A DNA stretch of 64,000 nucleotides from Blastomyces gilchristii SLH14081. Lineage: Eukaryota; Ascomycota; Eurotiomycetes; Onygenales; Ajellomycetaceae. The position numbers and the translations under genes are program-made. Position 1 is the first letter of the stretch, and the number at the start of each line of letters is the position of its first letter. The notes beneath the pieces were generated by a model. It ran no database searches. It worked only from the letters and a program-made list of their open reading frames with translations, and was not told where the DNA came from. Of the stretch, positions 3,203 through 54,190 are shown one piece after another. The stretch is from the NCBI RefSeq assembly GCF_000003855.2, contig NW_003101682.1, forward strand, positions 125,178 to 189,177, written 5' to 3'.

Positions 3203-3221
3203 ATAATAATAATAATAATAA
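3203..3221 (+). repeat. (AAT)n LINE 3' tail
   Basis: A run of AAT triplets ends LINE-1, exactly as at 29164-29182 in the full-length copy. It marks the 3' end of target-primed insertion. Confidence 0.85.
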
Positions 3222-5222
3222 GAAGTTCCTTGTCATAGATCTTATAATTGCATTCAACAGAACTCAGTTTCTTAGACATGAAGATGTATAATTGTAAGAC
3301 ATCTTTATTATTATATTATAATATAGCTTCTTCTATAATATAGTCAGAGAAATCAGCTTCAATAACTGTCTCACAGTCAGAATCAATTATTATCAGCAGA
3401 GAGATATTAATGAACATCTTCTTCATCTGTATGAATGCAGCTTCAGCATTCACTAATCACTGAAATACTGAATTCTTCTTAATCAGTTCTGTAAGTGATC
3501 TCACAATATCTGAGAAGTTTTGTATAAATTGCTGATAGAAGTTAGCAAATCTGATAAAGCTTCATATATCTTTCACAGTACATGAAGCTTCTGACTCAAG
3601 AATAGCAGAGATCTTCTTAGAATTCATTCAAATTCTCTTATCAGCTTCTATGATAAAATCTAGATATTTTATACTCTTGACTTTGAAATCACACTTGTTA
3701 ATATCTATTGATAGTTCTGTCTCTTATAATCATTGTAATACTCTCTGTACATGTTCTTGATATTTCTTCCTGAATTCATCAGTAAAGATGAGAATGTCAT
3801 CTAGATATGCAGATATAAAGTTATCAAGAAAATCTCACAGTGCTCAGTTGATATACTTCTGAAATGTACTGAGAGCATTAACTAGTTCAAAGAGTGTGAC
3901 TACTAATTCAAAGAGATCATAATGTGTTTGAAATACTGTAAGTCATTCATCTTCTTCAATAATACAAATCTTATGAAACACAGCAATGATATCTAGCTTT
4001 GTAAATTATTGAGCTCATCTGATACATGCTAGAGTTTCATTAATGAGAGATAAGAAATAACAATCTTTGCTTGTCAATCTGTTCAGATCTCAATAGTTTA
4101 CACAGAATCAGAGTTCTTCATCTGATTTCTTTGTAAAGAGAATAGAAGCTGCAGTGGAAGAGTTACTAACACATATAAATCTCTTATTCAACAGATCATT
4201 GAGTATCTTCTGAAGAAGAAGAAGTTCATCTCAAGACATATTATAAAAAAGACCTCATGATGACTCAGAGTTCTTATTATTCTTCTTTTCTAACTTGATA
4301 CTGTGATTTACTTCTGAATCTTATAAAGAGAGTATATTCATAATATTATCTTATCAGAAGATATCTAGATATTCATGATATTATTGAGAGAGTTTTGTGT
4401 AAGAATCTATTATTATAGTACAGAATTACTTCTCTACAGCTTTCTTGATATTAGTCAGACTGATGAAATAGATTGATATATGATTCTACTCTTAGTAACT
4501 TTATCAGCAGTCTCATCAATGACTTCTTTTTCAGAGCATTTCATAAGTATTAACAGAGATCTGTATAAGATTCATAGTCTTATAAATATCATCTTCATGA
4601 ATTCTATCATTATTAGAGAATATTAAACTTCTGTTTTAAGCATTTAATAAGATGTCTTGTTCAGATAGTCAGATAAGTTCTAGTATAAGATCATAGTCAA
4701 TATTATTAATTTCATATATATAGACATCTTCACATTGATGTTCTCTGATATCTATGTTTAGTTTTATTATATAACAGATGTGAATGCCTTTTGAATCATT
4801 AAATTCTGTGAAATGTCAGAGTTTTAATAAGAAGATATGCTAGAGATTATAACATCTTACAACTGAAGATTTAATCATTGTATAATAGCATAGATCACTG
4901 TCTATCATGACTTTCATATTATATATGTTATCTATCACAGTAGATACAAGAATTGCATTCATTATTATTTTCTCTTTAAATTATTATCATCTGATCTCTT
5001 CAAGCTTCTGCTTGCAAATTTGAACAGAAGCTAATCTTTTCCCTGTTTCATGAGAGTATTCTCATAGTTATCTTCTGAATCTTTCTCTAATGTAATGTAA
5101 TTGATGCAGACAGATGCTGATTCATTCTTTAAGTGAGAAGACACTGATCTTTCTCTTGAGTAAGAAGCCATGTAGACTGATCAGCAGTTGAAAGCAATGT
5201 ATTCTGATTGATTACAATTAAT
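3220..5222 (-). mobile_element. Type-1 chromovirus F, segment 1 (RNase H, RT, protease)
   Basis: Minus-strand Ty3/Gypsy pol sequence collinear with element A from about 15290 to 17290. In element orientation it holds the protease (about 4740-4960), RT (about 3550-4280) and the start of RNase H near 3220-3500. The RT box reads YLDD (minus strand, 3796-3807), so the catalytic pair is preserved despite many stops elsewhere. Its 3' part (integrase, 3' LTR) lies left of the LINE or was lost. It is cut at 5222 by element E, with the target TTAAT repeated at 12475-12479. F is the oldest layer of the left half. Confidence 0.88.
5218..5222. repeat. Target-site duplication of element E (left)
   Basis: TTAAT precedes the 5' LTR and recurs at 12475-12479 directly after the 3' LTR. 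This 5-bp duplication is normal for Ty3/Gypsy integration. Confidence 0.92.
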
Positions 5223-5481
5223 TGTAAGAAATCCCGCTCCTCGCGAATCCTTTACCTCTATTCCTATCTCTCACATAATTAATAGGGTTAGCAGCCCTTG
5301 GCTACACACAACTATATAGACTGGAGTTCACGAATACTATTCACAACTCAGCTTGAATACTATTATACATTTTAATCTCTACATTTTATCTTTCTACTGT
5401 GAATACTTCTAGTAGTTAACAGTACATATCATGTCAAGCTGCAAACACCTGAATAATCACCTGTGAGTACTTATTCTTATA
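5223..5481 (+). repeat. Element E 5' LTR
   Basis: 259 bp starting TGTAAGAAATCCCGC and ending TTCTTATA, a decayed form of TTCTTACA, so the termini are inverted repeats TGTAAGAA/TTCTTACA. The outer (left) end keeps CCCGCTCCTCGCG, while the inner (right) end has lost its CpGs. The 3' LTR shows the opposite polarity. Confidence 0.93.
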
Positions 5482-5596
5482 TTTCAAGCTCAGTCAGTCA
5501 GCAACTCTCTGTTATGACTGAAAGGACTAGAAACTCACATACTTCAATCCCTGTGAACTCTACTGCAGACACTCAGAAGCAGTCACCTGAATCATG

Positions 5597-6730
5597 AACA
5601 ATCTTCATAAAAGAAGTCTCAGAGAACTTATCAATTACTCATAGAACATCATTCTCTGCATCTGTGACAGAGAAACTCTTCAAACTCACAAATGAATCAA
5701 TCTCAGTGAAGAACATTCTTGAGCATCTCTTATGAAATCAAGCTATTTTTCTACAAGAAATGCTTGCTGTCTGTAAACATTCTTGAACTGAGTCTCTAGA
5801 CATGATCTTCAGAGATACTCACAAACTGAAAAGAAACTTTCTTAAGTCATGATCACTTAAGATCACTTATTGAATCATAATTTATAAAAGCTTTTATAAG
5901 TTTGTATTTGAAATTGACTCACAAGCTCAGCTGTGTGATATAAAAGATGAAGAAGCTGTTATCTATATAATGACAGACCTCTACTACACTGAAGCTAAGA
6001 ACTGACTGAATTATCTAGAGAATGATTATGAGAGATTTCACTGATCTGTTCTCAAGACCTATCTAGAGAACAAGTTAAGAGACTCTGTAAGTCAGACAGA
6101 GAACACCTGAACTGTAATCACTAATATTAGAAAAAGAGGTGAGAAATCTGATGAAGACTACTCACAGTGCTTCATAGAATTATGATGTAAATTGAGATCT
6201 GTGAAAACAGGACTCTGAAATAAGACCTGAATCATGATATTTATAAAGAGACTGAATAAAGATATGCAGAATAAGCTTATTAAGTAAGACTCTAAGTTCT
6301 TAACTCTGAAGAAACTGATGACTTTCATTCACTGCTTACAGATCACTGTGAGAATCACAGATCTGTGAAGAGTGAATCACTGACTGACTCTGTGAGAGCT
6401 AGAACAACAGAGAACAGATTTGTTAGAAAAAGATAATAAGATATAGAGAGATTCATATCTGACTGCTAAGTAGAGAGAGAGAGCTTCATAAGCTTCTGTA
6501 AATAGAGTGTATAATAGAGAGATTAAGAAAAAGAGACTCTACTTTATCTATTCTAAATCAGAATATCTCTGTGCAAACTGTTCAGACAAATTAAAATAGA
6601 AATTTGAGAAGTTACAGACAGAGTCAGTAACAGCCTTTTTAAAAGTCTTGAAGCTGACATCTGAATCTGTTACTTCTCTAATGAAAATGCTTACTCATAG
6701 AGAGAGACTGCACTGCAGTACTGCTGCTCT
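5597..6730 (+). pseudogene. Element E gag remnant
   Basis: Between the 5' LTR and the protease lies a broken frame in the gag position. It is rich in charged residues and contains a CxxC pair at about 6570-6580 where a nucleic-acid-binding knuckle might sit, but no complete CCHC motif is readable. The start near 5597 is the first plausible ATG; the true start is uncertain. The gag protein would form the intracellular particle that packages element RNA. The same region, equally damaged, occurs in H from about 60350. Confidence 0.6.
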
Positions 6731-9700
6731 ACAAGCATGAGAAGTATTAATGAACTCAGGATCTCAGATCACTGTAGTGTCTCTAAAGCTTATAGAGTAA
6801 ATGAGCTGAAAGATGAAAACTGAGAATCTGCTCTTATAATAAGCAGAATGTGAGAACTCAGATCTGAGAACTGAGAGACTTATAAGAGTCATCTTTGAAT
6901 TATAAGATCTCTCTGAAATCTGAAGAAGATTTGCAGAAACTGTGATCATCACAGACATCATAGATGATATGTACTTAAGACTTATATAACTTCAAAGACA
7001 CAATCTGCACATAGCTGTTCATGAGTCAGGTTTATACTTTCAATCAGTGTTGATAGACTTACTTATGAAGATAGAATCAGTTAATACTGCAGAGTTGATT
7101 AGAGAAGACAAGCTCATCTATATAATAACTTTACAAGTGTCTGAGAATCTCACAGTCATGAAAACTAAGCTTCAGATACTAGAGAAATACTGAGATCTTA
7201 TAGAGATATTCAGCTCAGTAAAGATAGCTGAGCTTCCTTCTCACTATAAGAAGAATCTGATAATAGATTTGATAGAAGAGTAGAAACTCTTCTGAGAGTT
7301 AATCTATAAGCTCTCTTATTATGAGACAGAGGTCTTGCAGATCTATGTAAAGAAGAATCTGAAGAATAACTTCATCTGATCTTCACAGATCTCTGCAGAA
7401 GTCTCTATAATATTTATAAAGAAGAAGAATAAAGATCTCAGATTGTGTATAGACTACTGTAATCTGAACTTTAAGATAATAAAGAGCTGCTACTCTCTGT
7501 CTCTGATTGAGAATGTGATTAATTATCTCACAGAAGCTGTTATATTCACACAACTGAATATGATTAATGTATATACATGACTGTAAATACAGTCTGAGAA
7601 TGAATAAAAGACTGTCTTTAGAACTGCACTGAGATTGTTTGAATATCTAATGATGTCTTTTGATCTGACTAATACTCTCACAGCATTTCAGTCTTTTATT
7701 AATAAAACACTTTATATATATCTGAATGTCTTCATGATAATATATCTGAATGATGTGATAATGTACTTCATAAAGAAGAAAGAACACACTGAGTATGTGT
7801 GAAGTGTGTTGAAGATCTTAGATAAGACAGAACTGTATATTAAGCTTATAAAGTACAACTTCAGTGTCTACTGAATTAATTTCCTAGAATATATAATCAC
7901 TGCAAATGATATTCAGATGAAATCTTTATAGATTGAGACTATTCTATCATGATCAGAGCTAACTAGTATTTATGAGATTCAGATCTTTCTGAGCTTTGTA
8001 AATTTCTATAGATAGTTTATCTTTGCATTTATAAGAATCTTCTTGACTCTTACAGACATACTGAAGAATGAAAACAAGAAGAAGTCATTCTATAAATAAA
8101 GAATGAAAAGATTATTAAGAAGAGAGAACTGTGAGAACTTTCTTATCTTAGAAACTCACAGAGTCTTTATAAGATTGAAACAGGTATTCATAGACACAGT
8201 AATACTGTTCTACTTTGATTTCTTACTCTTAATCAGATTAGAGACAGATATCTTCTTATTTATAATTTCAGAAATAGTCTCATAACTACAGTCAAATAAG
8301 AACTGAGTTTCAGTGACCTTTTTCTTATGAAAGATGCAATCTGTGAAGATTAACTATAACATTTATAATCAGAAGCTTCTTATAATAGTGAAATTCTTTC
8401 ATCACTGATGTCACTACTTTGAGAGTCTCATGACAGTGATTACTGTTAGAACTGATCATGATAGCTTATGATAGTTTACTTCAATCAAGAAACTCTCACA
8501 GTGATGGATTCACTGAGCTCAGAGACTGAGTGAATTCTGATTCAAGATAGAATATATCAAGAAAACTAAGAACTCAGTAGATAAATTCTTTCACAGATCA
8601 GACTATATTAAGAAGACTAGAATGACAGATACAGAGAGACTAGAGAAGACAGAAAAGCTTCACAGAATGCTCAGACTGAGTGTTATAAAGAGATTAACTG
8701 AAGAGTCTCTCAATCTCTTATAAGAGAAGAAGAAAGAGAGAGAAAAGAAGTCTGTATAACTACTCTCTATAATACTGAGAGTTAACACTCTGAGAATCTT
8801 CATAAGAATTCTTGAAGAGAGTATCTATAATCTGAAGAGATTGCAGACTTTGAGAAGCACTGTAGAAGATCTGATGTAAGAGAAAACAGAGTATAAGTTT
8901 TTATAAGATCTTCTATTCAGATTGTCTGAACTGTAACTGAAGAACAAATATACTCAGTATATTCAGAAACTGCTTACAGCAGGGATCAACTCTGCAGAAA
9001 TAAAGAATTAAAGAGACTTAAATAATCTCTTACAAAGAGAGGGTCAGATTTATATGTCTGTAAATGAGTTTCTATGTATAGAACTTATTAAAAGGTATTA
9101 TAACTCTTCTCTAGCAGATCATTTTACAGATACTAGAACTTATAAGTTGCTTATAAGAAAATACTTCTGACTGAAGATATGAGAACTTATGAAGAAGATA
9201 GTGAATTCTTGTACTGTTTATCAAGTTCATAGATAGTGTAATTCAGATTATATGAAGAACTTACTTCTCTATTCATTCTGCAGAAATCTTAAGAACAGCT
9301 AGAAATGAACACTTTTATAAGTCTCTCTGAAAGCAAGAACATATATAATACCTGCTTTGACAGTGTGCTGATGATAGTGAATTACTTCATCAAGATAGCA
9401 CACTTTATACTCACTTATAAGAACTTAAAGTCAAAGAATTTGACTTATATCTTCATCTATAATATAATTCAGTTGCATGAGTTGCCTGTGAACATTGTCT
9501 CAGATAGAGAATCAATTTTTACAGAGAAGTTCTGATCTGATCTGATAACTATACTGAAGATCTCACAAGATCTAAGCACAGCTTTTCATTAACAGACAGA
9601 TGATCAGATAGAACATCTGATAAGTATATTAAAACAGTATCTACAGTGCTTTATCAATTATAATCAGAATGACTGAATGCATTGATTATCACTCACAGAG

Positions 9701-10378
9701 TTCATGTACAACAACTCAAAGTATATTAGTACAGATAAAACCCTCTTTGAAATGCTCACTGAGACTTATTCACAGATAATCTTGATGAATCTGCAAGAGT
9801 ACACTATAGAGTGTGATGATGTCTGTGAACAGGCTGAGAGAATTCAGAAGATTCAGGAGAAAGTCTGTGAATTCTTGAGAAAGATCTAAGAGTATCAGAA
9901 GAGATACTATGACTTCAAGCATATTATAAAGAGTTTTAAGAAAGATGATAGAGTCTAGCTGAGTCTAGAAAATATTATTATATAGAGATCTAGTAAGAAG
10001 CTGAATCTCTTATAGATAGAGTCTTATAAGATTATGAAGAAAGTTAGCTCACAGTTCTACAGATTAAAACTGCTATCTAAGTTATAGATATATAATATTT
10101 TTCATGTCTCTTTACTCTGTAAATATAAGAAATTCTCAGAAGAGAACTCTGTAACTCATTATTCTATTTATAAAGTACTAGAGAGTGAAAGAGAATATCA
10201 GATCAAAGAAATTATTAACTCAGAGAAGCAAGATTACAAGCTCTGATTCAAGATTCAGTGATAAGAGTATTCTGATAAGATGAATAAGTTCACTTGAAAA
10301 TCATCTGAGCAGATAAGATATCTGCAGAAGCTAAGACATGACTTTCATACTATGAATTCTGATAAGTCAGAATAACAC
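6731..10378 (+). pseudogene. Element E pol remnant: PR, RT, RNase H, integrase, chromodomain
   Basis: Domains in order: a retropepsin-like protease with NSGSQ at about 6755 where D(S/T)G is expected; RT about 7370-8060, with the box reading YLND at 7743-7754 (D to N by GG-to-GA); RNase H about 8150-8600; an H2C2 zinc region about 9110-9250; an integrase core about 9300-9900, including a VSDRES segment; and a C-terminal chromodomain about 10170-10370. Both the protease and RT active sites are lost by G-to-A changes and stops are frequent, so the copy is dead. The chromodomain places it among chromoviruses, which usually integrate into heterochromatin. Confidence 0.85.
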
Positions 10379-10379
10379 A

Positions 10380-12215
10380 GTCTTTACTAAGAACCTGATT
10401 ATAATAAAGATATTAATACTATCATTTACAAATTCTAGTCTATAAGATAATGAGTTTCTACTGAGATGAACAGTCTGCAGTGTATACAAAGAGAAGAATA
10501 AATCATGCTCTCATTAAAGTTAAAAAATAAGAAAATAAAAACAGGGCTATGAACACAATTTAGAGATTAATAAAGAAAAAATAAAGAAAATTCACACTCA
10601 CATTCTCAATATCTGTGATATTCAATCTTCTCACAACTATCAATTTCTCTCTTCAAAGAAGCAGAGAGTATCATGCCTGTGATACAGACAATTGTTGTAT
10701 TTGACATGAAGACTGTCAGAAATGCACAGACTTCAGAGAAGTCAGACATCAGAGTGTGCACAGTTGTGACAGAGTCTTGAGAACTGACTGTCTGTGCATG
10801 TGATCAGATACTTCTCACAAAGCTGTGTTCACTCTCTCAGTTATACTGAAGTATTCAGCCTGGAAATAATTAAGATACAAAGAGAAAGCTCATCTGTTCA
10901 GATTAACTCTCATCACAAATTCATGACATTTGCATTGTCTTAATTACCTGGATTTTGCAGATACCTGGAAACTCATCTCTCATTGATAATGAGATTGTGA
11001 AAATGCGCTGTGGCGCGAGGACCATTGATAGAAAACCTAGACATATTTGTATATATCTGGTCAGAGATTATGCAGACAGAGAGAAGGTGATCATAGGTCT
11101 GTGAAGCTGTAGAAGACACTGACAACACTGAGAGCTTTACAAGAATTATCAGCTAGAGTCTGTAAGAAATTACTTATAAGAAGACTTATAGTAAAGAAGA
11201 GAACTGCACTGCTTGAAGCCAGAGACTGATCTGAAGAAGATATGAAATTAGTCACTGGTCTGAAGATCAGGTGCGGTGACAGGGCTGAGAGAGATGAAGA
11301 TACTGTCATGAGTGATGATATTTCTGCTTCATCAGCCAGTAAAAAGTGATTAGAGAAGTTGCAGAGATGCTCATGAGAAGCTCAGCAGCAGTCAGACATT
11401 ATTTATAAAGATATTGAAATTAGAAAATTTTTATTCTTGAGAAGTTCTTGAATTAATATATAGATATTGTTAGAAACACTCTCTCTCTGTTATCTGAGTG
11501 AAAACACTTCATGAATGAATAAGAATACTCACAGTTTGTAAAGATGAAAGCTGTTATAGAAAAAGAGAAAAGAAGATGAGATTTTACAGATAGATCTGAG
11601 ATATTTATACTACTCTAGAGAGATTTACTTACACTGTGAGTAATTCTATAGAACAGTCAGATCACTCTAATAAATAAGAGTGATTATGAATCACAGGCCT
11701 GAATCTTTCTATATAACTACAAAGAGTGATTGCAGATCACAGATATCTTGATTCTACAATTCTACAGAGTTGATGAAAGAATGAAAAATTCCTCACAATT
11801 CTACAGTATCAAAGAACAATAATTTATAAGAATAAGTGAAAGATTAACTTGTGAATACTTCTCTTTAATAAGAGTGATCTCACAGAGAGTGATTCATCTG
11901 TAAGATGAATCTGTATAATAGTTACACAAGAATTTTGTGAAAATAATTGAGAGTCAACTGAAACTCTTCTGTATAAAAGATGTGAGATAAATCTGTGTAG
12001 TAGTCAGAGAAGAATCTGTAAATTATAAAGAATCTCACAGAATAAGAAACTGAGTGACTGACTCTTTTCTCTTCATAGTAATAAGAGATTTTTCCTCACT
12101 GAGATTTTTTATAGATATAAAGAGTTTTTAGTGAGTATCACTGCAGTGCTGAGCTGATTCTATGAAGTCACTCAGTGAAAGACTTCACAGATAAAGTCTT
12201 AGAGAGAGAAGAGTA
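10380..12215 (+). other. Element E post-pol region with a possible extra plus-strand ORF
   Basis: About 1.8 kb between the chromodomain and the 3' LTR. A plus-strand frame at about 11092-11344 reads as a charged polypeptide (for example LLEARDWSEEDMKLVTG), bounded by likely W-to-stop codons, and a cysteine-rich stretch is readable near 10680-10800. Parts near 10995-11020 (GCGCTGTGGCGCGAGGACC) and 11270 keep CpG. I do not recognise a family. It may be an accessory ORF or a captured sequence. An antisense frame at 11091-11309 overlaps it and looks like a shadow. Confidence 0.45.
12200..12215 (+). other. Element E polypurine tract
   Basis: AGAGAGAGAAGAGTA lies directly before the 3' LTR, in the position of the primer for plus-strand DNA synthesis. 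Confidence 0.6.
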
Positions 12216-12474
12216 TATAAGAAATCTCACTTCTTATGAATTCTTTACTTCTATTCCTATCTCTCACATAATTAATAGGGTTAGTGGTCCTTGACTACAC
12301 ACAACTATATAGACTGGAGTTCGCGAATACTATTCCCAACTCAGCTTGAATGCTATTATACATTTTGATCTCTACATTTTATCTTTCTACTGCAAATACT
12401 TCTAGTAGTTAACAGTACATATCACACCAAGCTGCAAACACCCGAATAATCGCCTGCGAGCACTTATTCTTACA
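12216..12474 (+). repeat. Element E 3' LTR
   Basis: 259 bp, the same length as the 5' LTR. The inner start is heavily mutated (TATAAGAAATCTCAC against TGTAAGAAATCCCGC). The outer end keeps CpG (ACCCGAATAATCGCCTGCG) and the intact terminus TTCTTACA. Confidence 0.93.
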
Positions 12475-12988
12475 TTAATGCATATCTCTCATTGACATCA
12501 GTCAGTGACTTCTTCAGAAGTGATCTCAGAAACTCAGAAGTCTGTTCAGATAGCAGAGACTCTTGCTTATATATAAATATTTAAGTCTACTCAATTCATG
12601 ACATCTGTATCATTGTTGTTATTCCTTAGCACAGATATATAAGTGACTGAGATATAATATCTTCTATTACTGTTTTGTATACTCTTAAGCTTGATAAGAT
12701 GATCATTCAATGTCTGAAGTTGTACACAGAAATCTTCATAAGTCTGGTCTTTGTCTACACTTACAAGAGTCTGTAAGAGTTTGAAAGTTAATGTCTTCTT
12801 GAGCATACTAATCTTTATTCAATTCTCTTAAGATTAATCATCTGCTTCTAGAATCTTGATATTGAAGTCAGGAATGAATGTTATGAGAGAAGTATTTCTC
12901 TATTAAGTGCTCTGTAATCAATCTAATGCTTTCTATTTTATGACAGTGTCTCAGAACAGAATATCAAGATATTAAATAATATTGTCAG
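12475..12988 (-). mobile_element. Type-1 chromovirus F, segment 2 (gag)
   Basis: Continuation of F after element E. On the minus strand it encodes the central gag region. The open part at 12591-12806 (71 aa) contains a YEDFCVQLQTLN-like block also present in A (17406-17630), B (31010-31228) and I (about 55080). It is interrupted at 12989 by MITE-1; 12981-12988 (ATTGTCAG) is the left target duplication. Confidence 0.85.
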
Positions 12989-13098
12989 TAGACTGGCCGC
13001 CGGGATCATGAATTTCATGTTTGGTCCCATTTGGTCTGGTCCCATACATTTCTTGGCGTGAATCCCGCTGGGACTAGTCGTTAAAAAAACATGCAAAG
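12989..13098 (+). mobile_element. MITE-1, left segment (hAT-like)
   Basis: First 110 bp of a non-autonomous DNA transposon with terminus TAGACTGGCCGCC. It continues at 18800-19058 and ends at 32487-32627. The three pieces sum to about 504 bp, matching the 506-bp copies at 32980 and 43481. It is flanked by 8-bp duplications ATTGTCAG (12981-12988) and ATTATCAG (32628-32635). The 8-bp duplication and TAG...CTA ends suggest the hAT superfamily; no transposase is present. Confidence 0.88.
13094..13098. repeat. Target-site duplication of element A (left)
   Basis: CAAAG here and at 18795-18799 brackets element A inside MITE-1. Confidence 0.92.
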
Positions 13099-13407
13099 TG
13101 TAAGGGGCCTACGCCGAATAGATCGGTATTATATTGATAGGTCTTATATAACAAAGAGAAAAACATTAGAGAAGGAAAAGAAAGAGAAAGTGCAAGAATC
13201 AGCAATTGAAGTGAATATTTATATGTGTATATGATGATGTACACAGTGAAGCTTCGGGGCGAAAGAATCTATACACATTCTGGTGATCAAGAATTGATGA
13301 TCAAGAATGGCTGAGAATCAGAGCATATACATTTGAGAATGAAGTGATTGAAATCTGTGAAGTGTAACAGAATAGTCTATATAATTGATCAGGCACAGCC
13401 TGCTACA
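13099..13407 (-). repeat. Element A 3' LTR
   Basis: The plus-strand reading starts TGTAAGGGGCCTACGCCG (outer, CpG kept) and ends CAGGCACAGCCTGCTACA (inner, CpG lost). In element orientation the LTR is TGT...ACA. Confidence 0.92.
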
Positions 13408-16400
13408 TTAGCTTCTTTCTTTCAGAAGCAGTTCTCATCAGTCAAGAGCTGCTGTTTCAGATAATGTGAAACTCAGAGTTCAGATTAATTGATTATAGCT
13501 GATTCATTTCATAAGATATTATCAGCTGCAGTCATAGAGTCTCTTATTAAGAATATTCTCAATCTCTCACTTAAGCTCATTATCTTCTTCTATGATGTCT
13601 AGCAGCTGTCAGTTGAAAGTTAGTTGAGAAGAGAATGAGTTGATGACAGTGCAGCAGAGCAAGCTTGTATAAAAGACATTATGAATTTCTGATAATATAT
13701 CAAGATAGTAGTTATGACTATCTAAGACTTCTATCACTTTATACTTGACATGATGATAATTCAGTATATGAGATGAATATATAATCTGTATATTCTTAAG
13801 ATTCAATCACATCAAGTCTTCTATCTTATATTATTCAGTGAAGTCTCAGTGAACATTGATTTGATTCTCTTGATCTTGTTTTACAGTTGTCATGAAGATC
13901 TCTGCTCAGTTACAGATATCTTGAAGCTTCATTACTATATTATCAGCAATCTGAATTGAACTGTGAAGATTCAGTGTGAACTGTGTAATCTCTAGAAGAT
14001 TCAACACTTTCATATAATAACTATGTATAAGAAAGAATAAGCTTATATCTGTTGAAATAATATTTTATTAATTGATAGTAATCTCTGCATGTAGAAGCAG
14101 GTCATGTCAATCATCTTGTAAGTGATTGCAGAACTTGTGAAGATAATTCTTTACAGTCTGAATTATTCATTCTGACATATCATCAGTCTTGAGATGATAG
14201 ATAGTTAACAGACAGTGAATAATCTTGAGAACTTGATAGATTCTTGTTCAGAGAGTGCTCATGAATTGACAGCTCTGATCTGATACTATGAATCTTGATA
14301 ATTCATACATTCAATAGAATAAGCTCTGTAGAAAAGCTTCAGTGACTTGTTCAGCATTTATCTTATTACAAGATTTAAATATTATATCTTTGCTTAATTA
14401 ATTCATGATAATCAGAATGTTTCTACAATTCTTACTCTCAGAGAGATCAATAGTGAAGTCAATTATCACATCTTATCAGATTCTATCAGAGATATTAAGT
14501 GATTTCAGTAGATCTTTTCTACAGTTCTTTTATGAGATGATAAAAGAACAATGATTGCAGTTTCAAATGAAATATCTGATACTGTTTAATATCTCAGATC
14601 AGTAGAACTCTTAAGAAATTATTTGATACAATTATTTATAATCTGAATGACTGATTATACATGAATCATGCATCTCTTGCATTATCTGAGTGTGTAAGAA
14701 TTCAGAGTAAAGAACTCAATGTTGTTCATGAAACTGTAGAGTGTTATTATCATCAATTAAGTATTCTGAGATGTTGATTCTTATATATAGTTCTGAGAGA
14801 AATCAGAGTGCTTCTTGATATACTGCTTCAGTAAGCACTTGAAGAAGTTCATCAGTTTGAGCTGTTATATGTCATAATTCATTCAGTGTAGATATAGAAG
14901 AAGTTGAGATATCAGTGTTAGTAACAGTTCAGAGAGAGAGTGTTCTAATCAGAGAAGTATGTATAGTGTCATGAGTTGTTCTATCTTGATCAATCAATAT
15001 CTTCAGATCTAAGAGCTGATGTTCTCAGTTTATTCAGTGTGTATCTGTCATATCAGATAGCATATCTTGTTCTTATCATGAGAGAGTGTCTGTTATCAAG
15101 TTCTGACTACTGAGACAGTAGTGTATTATAAAATGAAAGTGACTTAGAAATTCAGATCATCATATCTATTATTCAGTGAGTTTACAGATAATTGTGAAAT
15201 ACTTGAGATTCTTATAATCTATGATTATCTCAAATTTGAAGATGCTTCAGAGTTTGAAGTCTCATTCTTCTAAACAGTGTATAATCACAAGAAGTTTCTT
15301 ATTATAGATCTCATAATTGTATTCAGCAGGACTCAGTTTCTTAGATATGAAGATATATAATCATAGAATATCTTTATTATGATATTATAATATTACTTCT
15401 TCTATCATATAGTCAGAGAAATTAGCTTCAACAACTGTTTCACAATCAGAATTAAATATTATTAATAGAGAGATATTGATGAATATCTTCTTTATCTATA
15501 TAAATGCAGCTTCAGTGTCTGCTGATCACTAAAATACTGAGTTCTTCTTAATAAGTTCTGTAAGTAATCTTATAATATCTAAGAAGTTTTATATAAATCA
15601 CTGATAGAAGTTAGCAAATCTGATAAAGCTTTATACATCTTTCACAGTACACAGAGCTTCTCATTCAAGAATGATGAAGACTTTCTCAGAATTCATTTAA
15701 ATTCTCTTATCAGCTTCTATAATAAAACTCAGATATTTAGTACTCTTGACTTTAAAATCACACTTATTAATATCAATTGATAGTTCTGCTTCTCATAGTT
15801 ATTGTAATACTCTTTGAACATGCTCTTGATATTCCTTTCTGAATTCATTGATGAAGATGAGAATGTCATCTAGATAAGCAGATGCAAATTTATCAAGGAA
15901 GTCTCAGAGTGCTCAGTTGATATACTTCTGAAATGTACAGAGAGTATTGATCAGTTCAAAGAGTGTAACTACTCATTTAAAGAGATTATATTGTGTTTGA
16001 AATGCTGTAAGTCACTCATCTTCTTCAGTGATATAAATCTTATAAAATGTGATGATAATATCTAACTTTGTAAATCCTTGAGCTTGTTCAATGCAAGCTA
16101 GAGTTTCATTGATAAGAGATAAAGAATAACAGTTCTTCTTTATTAATCTGTTCAATTCTTGATAATTCACACAGAACTGAAGTTCTTCATCTAGTTTCTT
16201 TACAAAGAGAATAGAGACTGTGGTGAAAGAGTTACTAATATGTATATACTCTTTATTCAACAGATCATTGAGTGTCTTTTGAAGAAGAAGAAGTTCATCT
16301 TGAAACATGTTATAAAGAGAGTCTCATGATAATTCAGAGTTCTTGCTATTCTTCTTTTTCAACTTAATACTGTGATTCACTTCTGAATCTTGTAAGAGAG

Positions 16401-17080
16401 GTAGATCTGTAGCATTATTATCTTGTTAAAAGACATCTAGATATTCATGATATTATTGAGAGAGTTTTGTATGAGAATCTGTTATTATAATGCAGAATAA
16501 CTTTTCTAGAGTCTTTTTGACATTGATCAGACTGGCAGAATAGATTAACATATAATTCTGCTATCAGTGATCTTGTCAGTGATTTTCATGATGACTTCTT
16601 TTTCAGAGTATTTTATAAGTGTTAATAGAGATCTGTGTAAGATTCATAGTCTTATGAATATCATCTTTATGAATTCTATCATTGTTAGAAAATATCAAGC
16701 TTCTGTTTCAAGCATTCAATAAGATGCCTTGTTCAGATAGTCAGACAAGTTCTAATATGAGATTATAATTAAGATTATTAAACTTATATGTGTAGACATC
16801 TTCATATTGATGTTCTCTCACATCTATGTTTAGTTTCATCATGTAACAGATACAAACATCTTTTGAATCATCAAATTCTGTGAGAAGTCAGGGTTTTGAT
16901 AAGAAGATATACTGAAGATTATGATATCTTATAACTAAAGATTTTATCATTGTATAGTGACATAGATCACTGTCTATCATGGCTTTTATATTATATATAT
17001 TATCAATCACAGTAGATACAAGAATTGCATTTATTGTTATTTTCTCTTCAAATTATTATTATCTGACCTCTTCAAGCTTC
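13408..17080 (-). pseudogene. Element A pol remnant: PR, RT, RNase H, integrase, chromodomain
   Basis: Minus strand, right to left: protease about 17040-16740 with an IDSDLCHY segment in the active-site region (a D(T/S)G-type box already decayed); RT about 16410-15560 with an open piece at 16012-16308 and an intact YLDD box at 15865-15876; RNase H about 15480-15100; H2C2 and integrase core about 14750-13650; and a chromodomain near 13610-13480 that includes the readable segment EWEIENILNKRLYDCS, followed by stops at expected Q and W codons. Stops, not frameshifts, dominate the damage. The encoded polyprotein would have processed gag, copied the RNA and integrated the cDNA. Confidence 0.87.
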
Positions 17081-17089
17081 TGTTTATGA

Positions 17090-18206
17090 ATTTGAATAGA
17101 AGCTAATCTTTTTCCTGTTTCACTGAGACATTCTTATAGTTATCTTCTGAATCTTTCTCTAATGTAATATGATTGGTGTGGACAGACACTGATTCATTCT
17201 TCAAATGAGAAGACACTGATCTTTCTCTCAAGTGTGAAGACACATAGGTTGATTAGTAGTTGAAAGTGATATGTTCTGATTAATTACAGTTAATACACAC
17301 TTCATGTTGATGTTGATCAGTGACTTCTTTGAGAGTGATCTTAGAGACTTGAAAGCCTGTTCAAACAGTGAAAAGTCTTGCTTATGTATAGACATTTAAA
17401 TTTATTCAGTTTATAACATCTGCATTATTACTGTTATTTGATGCAGGTGTATGAGTGACTGAGATGTAACATCTTCTATCACTGTTCTGTATACTCTTGA
17501 GCTTGATAAGACAGTTATTCAATGTCTGAAGCTGTGTACAGAAGTCTTCATAAGTTAGATCTTCATTTATACTTATAAGAGTCTGTAAGAGTTTAAAAGT
17601 TAATGTCTTCTTAAGCATGCTAATCTTCATTCAATTCTCTCAAGATTGATTATCTGCTTCTAAGATCTTAGTGTTAAAGTCAGGAATAAATGTTATAAGA
17701 GAAGTGTTTCTCTGTCAGATACTCTGTAATCAATCTAATACTTTCTGTTATATAGCAGTGTCTTAGAATAGAATATCAAGATGTTTGATAATATTATCAG
17801 GCATTCACAATACTGATTTGTATGCTTTCATTCATGAATAAAATTTCTGTTTCATACAATTCTTCAATCATTCATTGATATATCAATCTTGATTGATTAA
17901 TGAACTGATGACATCTTCATCTATACTTAGTTTTGTGAGTATTTTCATTCTTCATAATGAGTAGAGAGTGAGATCAAAAGCATTGAAATATGTGAGAGTA
18001 TCTAAGTATTCTTTCAGCACTTTTGTATTTGATTCTGTAGATGTTGAAATTGTATGAGTTAATTATTGAATCTCTTTGTATTGAAGTTGTTAAGTTGTGT
18101 ACATGTCTGCTATCTATTGCTGTTATAATTTCAACATTGCTTGAAGTCACTGTGATATTACTTCTATGCTTGCACTTGAGAGTTCTCTTATATTGTCATT
18201 AGACAT
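17090..18206 (-). pseudogene. Element A gag remnant
   Basis: The probable start is the ATG on the minus strand at 18206-18204. The frame encodes a coiled-coil-like N-terminus, a central capsid-type region (open at 17406-17630, with a TYEDFCTQLQTLN block) and a decayed zinc-knuckle region near 17290-17200. In-frame stops are mostly TGA and TAA at expected W and Q codons. It would have formed the element's virus-like particle. The equivalent segment is partly deleted in element D. Confidence 0.75.
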
Positions 18207-18484
18207 GTTGTTTATTGAGTGTATGATATCTGTGAAATCTTGAAGAAGTGTAATTGTATGAATATCTCATACATCTGAGTGTCAGAACTCTCAGGTCTTT
18301 TACTGACATTCTCTTATAAGATCTTATTGTGAGGTCAGAGTGACTGATGAGCAAGCTTCTATCTGAGAACTCAGTGTCTGCTTAACTGTTTGACTGTTTC
18401 TCTATTTCTTACATGTTGTTACATGTTCAGATATCTCTTGATAAATAATTGTTTCTAATAAGAAAACAATGAATTTTTTTCTAG

Positions 18485-18794
18485 TGTAAGAGGCCTACAC
18501 TGAATAGATTGATATTATATTAATAGATCTTATATAACAAAGAGAAAAATGTTAGAGAAGGAAAAGAAAGAGAAAGTGTGAGAATTGATAATTGAAGTGG
18601 ATATTTATACGCGTATGTGATAGTGTATGTGATGGAGCTTCGGGGTGGAAGAATCTATACACGTTCATGGTGGCCGAGGATCGGTGATTGAGAATGGATG
18701 AGAATCGGAGTGTACGTGGTCAAGAATGAAGCAGTTGACATCTGTGAAGTGTAACGGAATAGTCTATATGATTGATCGGGCGCAGCCCGCCACA
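18485..18794 (-). repeat. Element A 5' LTR
   Basis: Outer (right) end GATCGGGCGCAGCCCGCCACA, read without its first base, keeps all CpG and CpC. The inner (left) start, TGTAAGAGGCCTACACTG, has lost them. This is the reverse polarity of the 3' LTR. Confidence 0.92.
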
Positions 18795-34076: not shown

Positions 34077-34409
34077 TGTAAGAGGCCTACGCTGAATAGA
34101 TCGGTATAATATTAATAGGTCTTATATAACAAAGATAAATATGTTAAAGAAGGAAAGAAAGAGAAAGTGTGAGAATCAGCAATCAAGATGAATATTTATA
34201 TGTGTATGTGATGGTGTACGCGGTGGAGCTTCAGAGCGGAAGAATATACGCGCGTTCATAGCAGCTGAGAATTGATGATCAGAAATGGCTGAGAATTGAA
34301 GTGTATGTTATATGTGTTCATAGCAGCTGAGAATTGATGATCAGAAATGAAAGAATCTATGAAGTGTAATGAAATAGTCTATATAATTGATCAGGTGCAG
34401 CCTGCTATA
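34077..34409 (-). repeat. Element D 3' LTR
   Basis: 333 bp. The outer left end retains CCTACGCTG and GATCGG; the inner right end reads CAGGTGCAGCCTGCTATA. Confidence 0.9.
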
Positions 34410-37400
34410 TTAGCTTCTCTCTTTCAGAAGCAGTTCTCATCAGTCAAGAACTGCTGTTTCAGATAACACAGAACTCAGAGTTCAGATCAGTTGATTATAG
34501 CTGACTCATTTCATAAGATATTGTCAGCTGCAGCTGCAGAGTCTCTTATCAAGAATATTCTCAATCTCTCACTCAAGCTCATTATCTTCTTCTATGATGT
34601 CTGATGACTGTCAGTCAGAAGTCAGCTGAGAAGAGAATAGATTAATGATAGTATAGCAGAGTAAGCTTGTGTAAAATATATTATGAATTTCTGATAATAT
34701 ATTAAGACAGTAGTTGTGACTATCTAGAACTTCTATCACTTTATACCTGATATAGCAGTAATCTAGCATATGAGATGAATATGTGATTTATATATTCTTA
34801 AGATTCAATTATATCAGATCTTCTATCTTATATTATTCAGTGAGATCTTGATAAATATTAATTTCATTCTCTTGATCTTGTTTTACAGTTGTTATGAAGA
34901 TCTCTACTCAATTACAGATATCTCAGAGCTTTATTACTATATTATCAGTGATCTGAATTAAACTGCAGAGATTCAGTGTGAACTGTGTAATCTCTAAAAG
35001 ATTTAACACTTTCATATGATATTCATATATAAGAAAGAACAGGCTTATATTTATTAAAATAACATCTTAATCATTGATAGCAATCTCTGTATGTAGAAGA
35101 AGATTATATCAATTATCTTATAAGTAGTTGTAGAACTTATAAAGATAATTCTTTATAGTCTGAATTATTCATTCTGATATATCATCAGCCTTGAAGTGAT
35201 AGATAGTTAACAGATAGTATATAATCTTGAGAACTTGACAGATTCTAGTTCAGAGAATACTCATGAATTGATGACTCTGATCTGATACTATGAATCTCAG
35301 TAATTCATGTATTTAATAGAATGAGCTCTGTAGAAAAGCTTCAGTGACTTGTTCAGTATTTATCTTATTATAAGATTCTAATATTACATCTTTGCTCAAT
35401 TGATTCATGATGATCAGAATGTTTCTACAACTCTTACTCTTAGATAGATTGATAGTGAAGTCAATTACTACATCTTATCAGATTCTATCAGAAATATTAA
35501 GTGATTTCAGTAGATTCTTTCTACAGTTCTTTTATGAGATAATGAAAGAACAGTAGTTGCAGTTTCAGACAAAGCATCTGATACTGTTTAATATCTCAGA
35601 TTAATAGAACTCTCAGAAGATTATTCTATACAGTTATTTACAGTCTGAATAATCAGTCATATGTAAATCATGCATCTCTTGTATTATTCAGATGTGTTAG
35701 AATTTGAAGTGAGAGACTCAGCATTGTTCATAAAATCATAGAGTGTTATTATCATTGATTGAATATTCTGAGATGTTAATTCTTACATGTAATTCTGAGA
35801 GAAATCAGAATACTTCTTATTGTACTGCTTCAGTGAGTGTTTGAAGAAGTTTATCAGTTTAAGCTACTGTATATTATAGCTCATCTAATGTAGGTTCAGA
35901 AGAAGTTAAGATATCAGTGACAGTTCTAATCAGAGAAGTATATATAGTGTCATGAGCTGTTTCATCTTAATCAACTAGTATCTTCAGATTCAAGAGTCAG
36001 TGCTCTTAGTTCATTCAGTAAGTATCTGTTACATCAGATAACATATTCTGCTCTTATTATAAGAGAGTATCTGTCATCAAGTTCTGACTGCTAGAACAGT
36101 AGTGTATTGTAAAATGAAAGCAGCTTAAGAACTCAGATCATTGTATCTGTTATTTGATAAGTTTACAGATAGTTGTGAAGTATTTGAGATTCTTATAATC
36201 TGTAGCTATCTCAAATTCAGAGATACTTCAGAGTTCAGAGTCTCATTCTTCTAAACAGTGTATAATTATGAGAAGTTTCTTATTATAGATCTCATAATTG
36301 CATTCAGCAGAACTCAGTTTCTTAGACATGAAGACACATAATTATAGAACATCTTCATCATCATATTATAATATTACTTCTTCTATTATATAGTCAGAGA
36401 AATCAGCTTCAATAACTGTCTTATGATCAGAATTAAATGTTATCAGCAGAGAGATATTAATGAACATCTTTTTCATCTATATAAATACAGCTTCATTGTC
36501 TGTTGATTATTGAAATACTAAGTCTTTCTTAGTGAGATCTGTAAGTGATCTCACAATATCTGAGAAGTTTTATATAAATTACTGATAAAAGTGAGTAAAT
36601 CTGATAAAGCTTCATACATCTTTCACAGTACACAGAGCTTCTCATTCAAGAATGATGAAGACTTTCTCAGAATTCATTCAAATTCTCTTGTCAGCTTGTA
36701 TAATAAAACTCAGATACTTGATACTCTTGACTTCAAAATCATACTTGTTAATATCTATTAGTAGTTCTGCTTCTTATAGCTATTGTAATATCTTTTACAC
36801 ATATTCTTGATATTCTTTTCTGAATTCATTGATGAAGATGAGAATGTTATCTAGATAAGTAGATACAAACTTATCAAGAAAATCTCAGAGTACTCAGTTG
36901 ATATACTTCTGAAATGTACTGAGAGTGTTAGTCAGTTCAAAGAGTATAACTATTCATTCAAAGAGATCATAATATGTTCAGAATACTGTAAGTTATTCAT
37001 CTTCTTTGATAATATGAATCTTGTGAAATGCAGTGATAATATCTAGTTTTATAAATCATTGAGCTTATCTGATTCATGCTAGAGTTTCATTGATAAGAGA
37101 TAAGAGATATCAATCTTTCTTTATCAATCTGTTCAGATCTCAGTAGTTCACACAGAATCAGAGTTCTTCATCTGATTTCTTTACAAAGAGAATAGAGACT
37201 GTGATGAAAGAGTTACTAACATGTATGAATTCTTTATTCAACAGATTATTAAGTGTCTTTCAAAGAAGAAGAAGTTCATCTCAGAACATGTTATAAAGAG
37301 AGTCTTATAATGATTCAGAGTTCTTATCATTCTTTTTCTCTAACTTGATACTGTGATTCACTTCAGAATCTTGTAAGAGAGATATATTTATAATATTATC

Positions 37401-38024
37401 TTATCAGAAGTCATCTAGATATTCATAATATTATTGAGAGAGTTTTGTATAAGAATCTGTTATTATAATATGAAATAACTTTTCTAGAGTCTTTTTAATA
37501 TCAGTCAGACTGATGAAATAGATTAATATATAATTCTACTATCAGTAAACTTATTAATAACTCTATCAGTGATTTTGATAATAACTTCTTTTTCAGAGTA
37601 TTTTATAAGTATTGACAGAGATCTGTGTAAGATTCATAGTCTTGTAAATATCATCTTCATGAATTCTATTATTATTAGAGAATATCAAGCTTCTGTTTTA
37701 AGCATTCAGTAAGATGTCTTATTCAGATAGTCAGACAAGTTCTAATATAAGATTATAATTGAGATTATTAACTTTATATGTATAGATATTTTCATATTGA
37801 TGTTCTTTCACATCTATGTTTAGTTTCATTATGTAATGAGTATAAACATCTTTCAGATCATCAAATCCTGTGAGAAGTTGAGATTTTGATAAAGAAATAT
37901 ACTGAAGATTATGATATCTTACAACTGAAGATTTTATTATTGTATAGTGACATAGATCACTGTCTATCATGGCTTTCATATTATACATGTTATCAATCAC
38001 AGTAGATACAAGAATTGTATTCAT
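34410..38024 (-). pseudogene. Element D pol remnant
   Basis: Minus strand, right to left: protease in the open segment 37731-38024 (97 codons, IDSDLCHY in the active-site region); RT about 37400-36560 with the box reading YLDN at 36846-36857 (second D lost); RNase H about 36480-36080; integrase about 35750-34650; chromodomain near 34490-34620. Stops are frequent throughout. It is collinear with A without obvious indels in this part. Confidence 0.83.
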
Positions 38025-38029
38025 TATTA

Positions 38030-38707
38030 TCTTCTCTTCAAATTGTTATTGTCTGATCTCTTTAAGTTCCTGTTTATAAATTTGAATAGAAGCTAATCTT
38101 TTTCCTGTTTCACTGAGACATTCTTGTAGTTATCTTCTGAATCTTTCTTCACTGCAATGTGATTGGTGCGGACAGACACTGATCTTTCTCTTGAGTGTGA
38201 AGACACATAGGTTGATTAACAGTTGAAAGCAATATGTTCTGATCAGTTACAGTTGATACACACTTCATGTTGACATTGATCAGTGACTTCTTTGGGAGTG
38301 ATCTCAGGGACTCAGAAGCCTGTTTGAATGGCGGAAACTCTTACTTGTGCATAGGCATTTGAATCTATTCAGTTCATGGCCTCTGCATCATTGTTCTTCG
38401 GTGCGGGTGTATGAGTGGCTGAGGTGTAATCGTATTCTCATACGTCTGAGTGTCAGGACTCTCGGGTCTTTCACTGACATTCTCTTGTAAGATCTTATTC
38501 TCTTTGTAAGATCTTGTTGCAGGGCCAGAGCAACTGGTGAGCAAGCTTCTATCTGAGAACTCAGTGTCTGCTTAACTGTTTGACTGTTTCTCTATTTCTT
38601 ATATGTTGTTATGTGTTCAGATATCTCTCAATGAATAATTATTTCTAATGAGAAGATGATGTGTGAATAATTGTTTCCTAATAAAGAGATGATGAACATT
38701 CTTATAG
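38030..38707 (-). pseudogene. Element D gag remnant and leader across the deletion
   Basis: The C-terminal gag joins directly to the 5' leader because the middle and N-terminus of gag are deleted. About 38280-38540 keeps GG, CC and CG (for example TGGCGGAA, CGGTGCGGG, GGGCCAGAGC), where A has the A- or T-converted versions. Confidence 0.8.
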
Positions 38708-39040
38708 TGTAAGAGGCCTACACTGAATAGATCAGTATAATATTGATAGATCTTATATAACAAAGATAAAAACATTAAAGAAGGAAAGAAAGAGAAAGTG
38801 TGAGAATCAGCAATTGAGATGAATATTTATATGTGTATGTGATGATGTACGCGGTGGAGCTTCAGAGTGGAAGAATATACGCGCGTTCATAGCAGCTGAG
38901 GATCAGTGATTGAGAATGGCTGAGAATCGGAGCATATGTTACGCGCGTTCGTAGTGGCCGAGGATCGGCGATCGGGAATGGAAGAATCTATGAAGTGTAA
39001 TGAAATAGTCTATATAATTAATCGGGCGCAGCCCGCCACA
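38708..39040 (-). repeat. Element D 5' LTR
   Basis: 333 bp. The outer right half keeps CpG (GTGGCCGAGGATCGGCGATC; GGGCGCAGCCCGCCACA). The inner start TGTAAGAGGCCTACACTG does not. Confidence 0.92.
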
Positions 39041-40275
39041 ATATTTAAGACAAGCTTCAGACAGATGTCAAAGAGTATATTAAGACTTACAATGTCTGTC
39101 AAAGAATAAAGGTCTCACAGTATAAGTAATACAATGAGTTAATATCACTGTCTATTTCAAAGAGCTCATGACAGAATCTATCAATGAATTTCATAGTTGA
39201 TCTGCCTAAGTCAATAAGAGTCAAAGAATATGACTCAATTTTAATTATTATTAACTACTTTACAAAGATAATCAAATATATTTCTACTTATAAAAAGATT
39301 AAAGCCTCTGAATTGACTGATCTGTTTTTAGATATTATTATTCATGATCACAGTACTCTGAAATTGTTAATAATAGATTAAGAATTTCTCTTCATCAGTA
39401 AATACTGATGAGCTTTTTACTATCATCTTATAATAAGATATCTTCTCAGTACTGTATTTCATCTGCAGACAGATAGTCAGACTGAACATCAGAATTAGAC
39501 ATTAGAACAGCATCTTCAAACATTCTATTAATATTATTAGAATGATTAACCTAAACATCTTCTAATCACTGAATTTATGTATAACAATATAAAGAATGCA
39601 ATCTTAAAGATATCTTCTTTCTATACTTATTATGAATATAATTCTTCATTACTCAGTGATGTTGTGAACAATATTTTAAAGAAGAGAATAGACAGTCAGA
39701 ATGTTGAATAGATACAGAGAATAGAGTATTTCTCAGTATCAGAAGTAAAAGCAAGATTGAAACTTTTGAATAAAATTCATAAGAAGATGATTAAAAGTAT
39801 TCACTGTGCTCAGAAGTAGCAGATAGAATACTATAATTGAAAACATCTTTTAATAAAGTTCTTGATAGAGAATCAAGTGTTACTTTCAGCAAAGAATATC
39901 AAGATAATGAGATTATATAAGAAGCTCAGTGAATAGTGACTAGAATCTTTCTCAGTAATAAGAGTGATGAATAAGCAGATATATAAGTTGAAATTAATCT
40001 CAGAATTGAAATCAATTTGTTCTATTTTTCACATCTTCTATTTGAAGTTCTATAAGCAATGCTCTGAGACAGAGCTGTCTCAGTCAGATGATATCAAGAT
40101 TGAGAGTGATACTGAATATCTTATAAAGAAAATATTGAATAAGTGAACACATTATGATAAGCTCTAATATCTTGTTAAATAAGAAGATTATTCATTGTCA
40201 GAGAATTTATAAAAATCACTTAAGCATTTGAAAAATGCTGAGAAATAGATTGTAAGCTATGAGATAACTAGTGAA
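39041..40275 (+). pseudogene. Chromovirus G, segment 2 (integrase and chromodomain)
   Basis: After element D the frame continues through the rest of the H2C2 zinc finger (about 39045-39110) and the integrase core. The open piece 39184-39381 starts MNFIVDLPKS, the typical Gypsy integrase segment, with the first catalytic Asp. The integrase C-terminus is in the open piece 39964-40146. A chromodomain follows at about 40095-40270 (EYLIKKILNK, then stops at expected W codons, then LKHLKNAEK). This is a chromovirus family distinct from types 1 and 2 in sequence; its LTRs were not identified. Confidence 0.82.
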
Positions 40276-53746: not shown

Positions 53747-53859
53747 TGTGATTTGAAAGAATGTATGACTGCTGAATAATAACACAGCCACTTCTGAACT
53801 TGCTTACAAATGTAAAGGAGCTATAGCGGCCACCAATTAATTTAGCGTACAGTATATAA
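53747..53859 (+). repeat. Element K 3' LTR, left part
   Basis: First 113 bp of the LTR, with the CpG-depleted inner start TGTGATTTGAAAG. It is interrupted after TATAA (53855-53859) by element I and continues at 59611-59664. Confidence 0.9.
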
Positions 53860-54190
53860 TGTGGCGGGCTGCGCCCGATCAATCATATAGACTATTCCAT
53901 TACACTTCATAGATTCTTCCATTCCCGATCACCGATCCGCGGCCGCTATGAACGCGCGTAGTGTACACTCCGATTCTCAGTCATTTCTGATCACTGATTC
54001 TCAGCTGCTACAAACGCGTGTATATTCTTCCACTCTGAAGCTTCATCATGTACATCATCACATACATGTATAAATATTCATCTTGATCACTGATTCTCAC
54101 ACTTTCTCTTTCTCTTCTTCTTTAACATTTTTATCTTTGTTATATAAGACCTATATATTATACTGATCTAATCAGTGTAGGCCTCTTACA
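53860..54190 (+). repeat. Element I 5' LTR
   Basis: 331 bp. The outer start TGTGGCGGGCTGCGCCCGAT and the block near 53930-53960 keep CpG; the inner end CTAATCAGTGTAGGCCTC has lost it. Confidence 0.93.

What the first reader, a model, noticed from the sequence alone, without database searches (positions are those of the whole stretch)
5223..12474. Mirror-image mutation gradients in the two LTRs of element E: outer ends spared, inner ends mutated
The LTRs were identical at insertion. Left LTR: the outer start keeps CCCGCTCCTCGCG but the inner end reads ACCTGAATAATCACCTGTG. Right LTR: the inner start reads TCTCACTTCTTATG but the outer end keeps ACCCGAATAATCGCCTGCG. CpG and CpC loss rises toward the element interior on both sides over roughly 100-250 bp. 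Uniform decay or age cannot give opposite polarity in twins. A homology-directed mutator that loses grip near the border with non-homologous flank would. RIP-like mutation of repeats is established in fungi; this edge sparing is my inference from the sequence.
Basis: partly seen in the sequence, partly recalled or inferred. Interest (0 to 1): 0.9.

Follow-up and report, generated by a model that had tools for sequence, protein, structure and literature searches.

The report
Repeat mutator spares homology-break edges
In this genome, probably a fungus's, the copies of a jumping element that were examined have lost nearly all CG letter pairs except in the outermost 150 or so bases at each end, and the two end repeats of each copy are mutated in mirror image, likely because a defence that is predicted to pair matching DNA copies and mutate them cannot act close to where the match stops.

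Summary
The window's LTR twins (5223-5481, 12216-12474; TTAAT target duplication) differ at 26 sites, 25 of them C/T or G/A, with opposite polarity. In 22 of 22 twin pairs the polarity is the same: 348 changes in the inner 64 bp, 34 in the outer 64 bp. Of 49 assigned LTRs picked by their centre only, 48 are polar as predicted, 1 tied, 0 reversed. A second family in the window (F) shows it in 3 of 3 pairs. Targets are CpG, CpC, less CpA, hardly CpT, equally on both strands.

Of 69 LTRs, 36 lie in flanks with 0-1 CpG in about 1.5 kb, yet keep a CpG-rich rim inside the border, which regional methylation or age does not explain. Two copies with internal deletions are also spared around the deletion joint, which argues against protection of cDNA ends. 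Against this, breaks in 10 E copies pooled show no sparing; I read most as younger than the mutations.

Best reading: a RIP-like, homology-directed mutator that needs collinear homology on both sides, leaving a rim of roughly 100-250 bp. Neurospora RIP has a partial precedent; Zymoseptoria shows the opposite. New variant of a known kind.

The parts
5223..5481 (+). 5' LTR of element E; outer (left) end keeps CpG/CpC, inner (right) end mutated
12216..12474 (+). 3' LTR of element E; inner (left) end mutated, outer (right) end keeps CpG/CpC
5218..5222 (.). target-site duplication TTAAT, left copy
   Evidence: read
12475..12479 (.). target-site duplication TTAAT, right copy
   Evidence: read
5482..12215 (+). 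interior of element E: 4 CpG in 6.7 kb, no long reading frame (longest closed stop-to-stop piece 96 aa)
3212..5222 (+). host DNA left of E: part of an F-family element, no CpG within 150 bp of the border
12475..12988 (+). host DNA right of E: continuation of the interrupted F-family element
59989..64000 (+). second E copy, runs out of the window; two CpG (60001, 60010) just inside its outer border
13097..18794 (+). F-family element F1 with LTRs 13097-13410 and 18483-18794; mirror-image twins
34077..39043 (+). F-family element F2 with LTRs 34077-34412 and 38708-39043 and an internal deletion; mirror-image twins
38332..38463 (+). CpG cluster spanning the deletion joint (about 38425) of F2: unmutated on both sides where other F copies are mutated
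53857..59613 (-). F-family element F3 with LTRs 53857-54199 and 59272-59613; mirror-image twins

Best explanation
In every twin pair examined the two LTRs are mutated in mirror image, likely by a RIP-like defence that is predicted to pair copies of the element along long collinear homology and to mutate C in CpG, CpC and less often CpA within the paired stretch. Shown: the polarity, the target context, the strand symmetry, the presence in two families, the rim inside CpG-poor flanks, and the unmutated zone at two deletion joints. Inferred: that homology is what is sensed; that pairing is needed on both sides of a site over roughly 100-250 bp, so that sites near a break in homology escape; that LTR-length pairing alone (about 257 bp, which would treat both ends of both twins alike) contributes little compared with pairing of whole elements; that one or more of the three cytosine methyltransferases found in the genome (DIM-2-like, RID-like, DNMT5-like) do the chemistry.
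For: 22 of 22 twin pairs polar, 348 inner against 34 outer changes. Where only one twin is mutated, it is the one farther from its outer border in 61 of 63 cases when the nearer site lies within 16 bp of its border, and in 21 of 34 in the last bin, from 112 bp. Centre-chosen LTRs: 48 of 49 polar, 1 tie. Second family 3 of 3 pairs. CpG per kb: 0.6-6.4 in the outer flank (2.9 next to the border), 56.8 in the first 50 bp inside, 12.5 and 13.0 in the next two 50-bp bins, then 0-2.4 apart from one bin at 7.2 (69 LTRs). Rim against flank: 5' LTRs 2.38 CpG (16 with 0-1 flank CpG) and 3.20 (10 with more); 3' LTRs 2.85 (13) and 2.70 (10); no significant correlation. Deletion joint in F2: 31 of 41 informative sites unmutated within 120 bp; the 12 highest of 405 windows in that copy are all centred within about 95 bp of the joint; median 0.33; 3 CpG on each side. 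E copy L019, which lacks about 255 bp right behind its 5' LTR: the inner LTR end is unmutated, and 6 rare unmutated sites follow in 150 bp; 19 of 7294 (overlapping) windows of other copies reach 6, and at the same place the other 54 copies reach at most 4. The same bases are spared in one twin and mutated in the other. Strands equal: C 269 of 1100, G 144 of 567. RID-like EET triad (triad per PMC6709928 passages), DIM-2 homologue, DNMT5-like.
Against: Pooled breaks of E copies show no sparing: within 100 bp of a break 18 of 124 candidate sites unmutated against 1579 of 9925 elsewhere (10 copies contribute, L019 among them with 4 of 8). I explain this by breaks younger than the mutations, which is after the fact, as was the choice of L019. 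Five copies without a known break also have clusters of 6 rare unmutated sites (L005, L028, L061, L068, L080). Of 42 repeat ends in the window, 16 have no CpG within 150 bp, and some F ends have CpG outside as well (5 left of 13097, 4 right of 59607). Only two deletion joints were found spared, and whether those deletions are unique in the genome could not be tested (the search did not complete). The CpG profile also reflects what the LTR sequence contained; only the twin comparison removes that. No experiment links any gene here to the mutations. Zymoseptoria RIP is strongest at LTR-element ends (PMC10294615 passages), so edge sparing is not a general rule of RIP.
Confidence: 0.75

Rival explanations
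1. Slow decay of methylated CpG in heterochromatin, with methylation weaker at element ends because it fades toward unmethylated flanks.
For: CpG is the most mutated context (159 of 284) and a DNMT5-like gene is present.
Against: The flanks are themselves CpG-poor (0.6-6.4 CpG per kb) and the rim does not correlate with flank CpG. CpC is hit nearly as often (145 of 304). A deletion joint inside an element is spared on both sides.
Confidence: 0.1
2. Editing of the retroelement cDNA before integration, with the two cDNA ends protected by integrase.
For: The spared ends are exactly the cDNA ends.
Against: Changes are strand-symmetric (269 of 1100 against 144 of 567); sparing also surrounds two internal deletion joints; a 507-bp element with inverted ends keeps CpG near both ends in its two full copies (small sample).
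Confidence: 0.05
3. RNA-guided (small RNA) methylation and mutation of repeats with spreading limits.
For: Such systems also act on repeats (general knowledge, not tested here).
Against: A guide shorter than the LTR matches both twins equally, so it cannot mark opposite ends in the twins without an extra rule (inference).
Confidence: 0.05
4. Gene conversion or recombination between copies restored the outer ends.
For: Repeats do convert each other (general knowledge).
Against: Conversion between twins makes them alike; here the twins differ at both ends with the outer end less mutated in 22 of 22 pairs, and inner patterns differ between all pairs.
Confidence: 0.03

Closest known systems
Repeat-induced point mutation (RIP) of Neurospora crassa
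   Same: C-to-T in repeated DNA; as few as 155 bp of homology can trigger it and 220 bp gives substantial RIP; in compound synthetic repeats mutations lie near or around the centre (PMC4858203, passages, section 11).
   Different: Neurospora prefers CpA (PMC12543289 passage); here CpG and CpC lead. [quoted passage not shown] here a deep rim is spared on natural transposons and at deletion joints.
RIP in Zymoseptoria tritici
   Same: Meiotic C-to-T changes in repeats and LTR elements (PMC10294615, passages).
   Different: There the most distal windows (5% of element length) carry 35% of the new mutations within transposable elements, mostly from LTR elements: the opposite polarity.
RIP of crapaud in Podospora anserina
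   Same: Full copies are hit, solo or fragment LTRs mostly not, put down to small size (PMC10787394 section 11).
   Different: No within-LTR gradient or twin comparison in the parts read (outline, sections 11 and 12).
Methylation-linked CpG decay of fungal transposons (Masc2 type)
   Same: CpG target (PMC4352252 passages).
   Different: CpC is also hit, and position follows breaks in homology.

Membership tests
RIP | C-to-T (G-to-A) transitions in repeated DNA, both strands | tested here: met
   582 transitions against 23 others; strands equal
RIP | Confined to repeated sequence; depends on homology length | tested here: inconclusive
   Rim at borders and at two deletion joints fits, pooled breaks of 10 copies do not; single-copy DNA was not surveyed
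RIP | CpA preference (typical of ascomycetes) | tested here: not met
   CpG 159/284, CpC 145/304, CpA 96/431, CpT 13/648
RIP | RID-type methyltransferase present | tested here: met
   L084 carries PCQ and EET, the triad reported for some Rid-like enzymes (PMC6709928 passages); its species-named matches are Coccidioides proteins. Presence only, role untested
RIP | Acts in premeiotic haploid nuclei of a cross; RID dependent | not testable with these tools
   needs crosses
Methylation-decay of CpG | CpG only, follows regional methylation | tested here: not met
   CpC nearly as high; rim does not correlate with flank CpG. Methylation itself was not measured

The most novel reading that the evidence does not exclude
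The genome carries a readable record of homology sensing: every break in collinear homology that existed when the mutator acted, whether an insertion edge or a deletion joint, is marked by a rim of unmutated CpG/CpC about 100-250 bp deep, so the reach of duplex pairing can be measured from sequence alone and breaks can be sorted into those older and younger than the mutation.
Probability: 0.5. Interest if true: 0.8.

Novelty: new variant of a known kind. Interest (0 to 1): 0.7.

Why it matters
How repeats are recognised without recombination is an open question, studied in the Neurospora paper read here with engineered repeats (PMC4858203). LTR twins are a natural paired experiment: the same sequence, with a break on opposite sides. 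If the reading is right they give the length over which the sensor integrates and argue against short guides, in any genome with such elements. It also warns that LTR-twin divergence in such genomes is not a clock: published Blastomyces LTR ages rest on it, in a paper that itself urges caution because of repeat-induced point mutation (PMC11540331 passages).

Tried and rejected
Uniform age or decay: rejected by opposite polarity in twins. Query bias: the first search used the whole left LTR and its 30 loci were nearly all 5' LTRs, so counts were repeated on LTRs found by their centre. Solo LTRs as a test: rejected, because LTR-LTR recombination in an already mutated element would also give two spared ends. 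The 3 copies that labelled solo are one LTR without E interior beside it (L043: 4 CpG in its first 60 bp, 1 in its last), one with a deletion behind it (L019) and one with 514 bp of other DNA behind it (L025). Naming E by Pfam: the one piece sent (9293-9535) gave no match; an integrase-like look of it is recalled, not tested further. Organism: DIM-2 and RID-like matches point to an ascomycete near Onygenales; size and GC resemble published Blastomyces gilchristii (73.25-75.4 Mb, PMC11540331 abstract; gypsy GC 29.9% in SLH14081, PMC4595289 passage), but the species was not established. Length constant: saturating curves with constants of 150-500 bp fit about equally (negative log likelihood 1441.8-1443.8), so the 100-250 bp rim is my estimate. 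In print: the listings showed no paper on a mirror-image twin gradient; the library lacks most subscription papers. Passages of PMC6218096 on Epichloe RIP had nothing on edges of repeats.

Full report
Observation. The two LTRs align without gaps over 259 columns and are bounded by a TTAAT duplication (read). The left LTR keeps its CpG/CpC at the outer start and has lost them at the inner end; the right LTR is the reverse. The window as a whole has CpG at 0.13 and CpC/GpG at 0.32/0.29 of expectation, while CpA and CpT are in excess (1.21 and 1.5).

Genome-wide test. The window lies in a 74.8-Mb assembly of 75 contigs with about 1500 first-look LTR candidates (1574, 1532, 1487), of which each search scores and lists only the best 40. 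Because a whole-LTR query favours copies with the same pattern, I queried with the LTR centre of each twin; 52 distinct places among the listed hits received loci. Of these, 1 had no full central LTR, 26 were 5' LTRs, 23 were 3' LTRs and 2 could not be assigned. Mean CpG in the first 60 bp was 2.69 in 5' LTRs and 0.09 in 3' LTRs; in the last 60 bp 0.04 and 2.78. The polarity was as predicted in 48 of 49, with one tie (the window pair is included).

Twin test. I asked for 20 partner LTRs of loci in hand, placed by neighbouring hits or by the usual spacing of about 6990 bp, and found 19. With two pairs already in hand and the window pair this gives 22 twin pairs. In all 22 the mean position of sites mutated only in the 5' LTR lies further inside than that of sites mutated only in the 3' LTR; the inner 64 bp carry 348 changes and the outer 64 bp 34; 582 differences are transitions and 23 are not, 13 of the latter in the pair L087/L065. 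That C and G are the older states is an assumption, backed by the context dependence. The inner patterns differ between all 22 pairs for each LTR. The excess of changes in the farther twin falls with distance, from 61 against 2 to 21 against 13. A constant rate fits much worse than a saturating rise (negative log likelihood 1615.2 against about 1442), but the length constant is poorly bounded.

Target. With the twin nearer its outer border as reference, the inner ends lost 159 of 284 CpG, 145 of 304 CpC, 96 of 431 CpA and 13 of 648 CpT cytosines, equally on both strands. This is not the CpA signature usual in ascomycete RIP.

Context. CpG density is 0.6-6.4 per kb in the outer flank (2.9 in the nearest 50 bp), 56.8 in the first 50 bp inside, 12.5 and 13.0 in the next two bins, then 0-2.4 apart from one bin of 7.2 at 1450 bp (69 LTRs, 29 of them from loci of the whole-LTR query). 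Part of this profile is the LTR's own composition; the twins remove that. Of the 69, 36 have 0-1 CpG in the outer flank. In the centre-chosen set the rim in such flanks is close to that elsewhere (2.38 against 3.20 in 5' LTRs, 2.85 against 2.70 in 3' LTRs). In the window 177 of 199 CpG lie in clusters of three or more covering 3121 bp, and 123 of 199 lie within 150 bp of 42 repeat ends that make up 18.6% of the window; 0 of 2000 shifts reach this. At several element ends the CpG lie only inside, for example 0 left and 4 right of 5222, 9 left and 0 right of 18792, 12 left and 0 right of 39041; at others they lie on both sides (13097, 53858, 59607), and at 21560 all 15 lie outside the F copy. 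Inner LTR boundaries have 0-2 (12216 2, 13410 1, 18484 2, 34412 0, 38706 2, 54192 0, 59271 1). Of the 42 ends 16 have none, including 3216 and 29183.

Second family. F elements (LTR about 315-345 bp; no match to E) at 13097-18794, 34077-39043 and 53857-59613 show the mirror gradient in 3 of 3 pairs.

Deletion joints. F2 lacks the segment matching 17469-18245 of F1. Around the joint (about 38425) F2 keeps C or G where other copies are mutated: 31 of 41 informative sites within 120 bp. The 12 highest of 405 windows of that copy all lie at the joint; the median is 0.33. The highest windows of F1 (0.60) and F3 (0.47) fall in the stretch that F2 lacks. The E copy L019 lacks about 255 bp right behind its 5' LTR. 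Its inner LTR end keeps CCCGAA, which none of the 46 5' LTRs printed keeps, and 6 rare unmutated sites follow within 150 bp, a value reached in 19 of 7294 windows of other copies. Against this, breaks pooled over 10 E copies, L019 among them, show no excess (18 of 124 near, 1579 of 9925 far), and five copies have clusters without a known break nearby. L020, L025 and L045 look like later interruptions, but their order is inferred.

Machinery. Three cytosine methyltransferase genes were found: one whose nearest species-named match is Dim-2 of Ascosphaera aggregata (59% over 88%), one with the EET triad of Rid-like enzymes (species-named matches Coccidioides), and one matching PDB 7r76 at 3.1e-58 (depositors' name Rad8, known to me as Cryptococcus DNMT5, recalled). 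None is tied to the mutations by experiment.

Reading. The same bases are spared in one twin and mutated in the other, so the cause is hardly the bases themselves, a bound protein or a short guide. It is the surroundings. Flank composition is disfavoured by nesting; cDNA ends are disfavoured by the deletion joints and strand symmetry. What outer borders and the two spared deletion joints share is a break in collinear homology with the other copies. A sensor that integrates over some 100-250 bp of paired duplex would leave such a rim. This agrees with Neurospora, where 155 bp triggers and 220 bp gives substantial RIP and mutations lie near the centre of compound synthetic repeats (PMC4858203), and with Podospora, where solo or fragment LTRs mostly escape (PMC10787394). 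It is opposite to Zymoseptoria, where LTR-element ends are hit most (PMC10294615).

Verdict. Observation confirmed; interpretation supported, with the correction that the break in homology rather than the nature of the flank appears to set the rim. A new variant of a known kind, useful as a natural ruler for homology sensing.

Noticed in passing
window 32979-33485, 43481-43987, 43033-43367, 18795-19058: A 507-bp repeat with short inverted ends (two full copies, two partial); in the two full copies the CpG lie within about 80 bp of the ends.
   Followed up: partly
window 42319-42409: Ten CpG in 91 bp; looked tRNA-like by eye, but ARAGORN found no tRNA in the window.
   Followed up: partly
window 21573-22205: The richest CpG cluster (35 CpG in 633 bp) begins where an F copy breaks off at about 21562; not identified.
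   Followed up: no
window 23191-24804: Three open pieces (257, 128 and 90 aa), one with a cysteine-rich zinc-knuckle-like pattern; the first two gave no Pfam match, the third was not searched.
   Followed up: partly
window 222-3221 and 26166-29182: A 3-kb repeat pair, 89.5% alike, whose right ends at 3216 and 29183 have no CpG within 150 bp; an exception not explained.
   Followed up: no
L005, L028, L061, L068, L080: Clusters of rare unmutated sites in the interior without a known break nearby.
   Followed up: no
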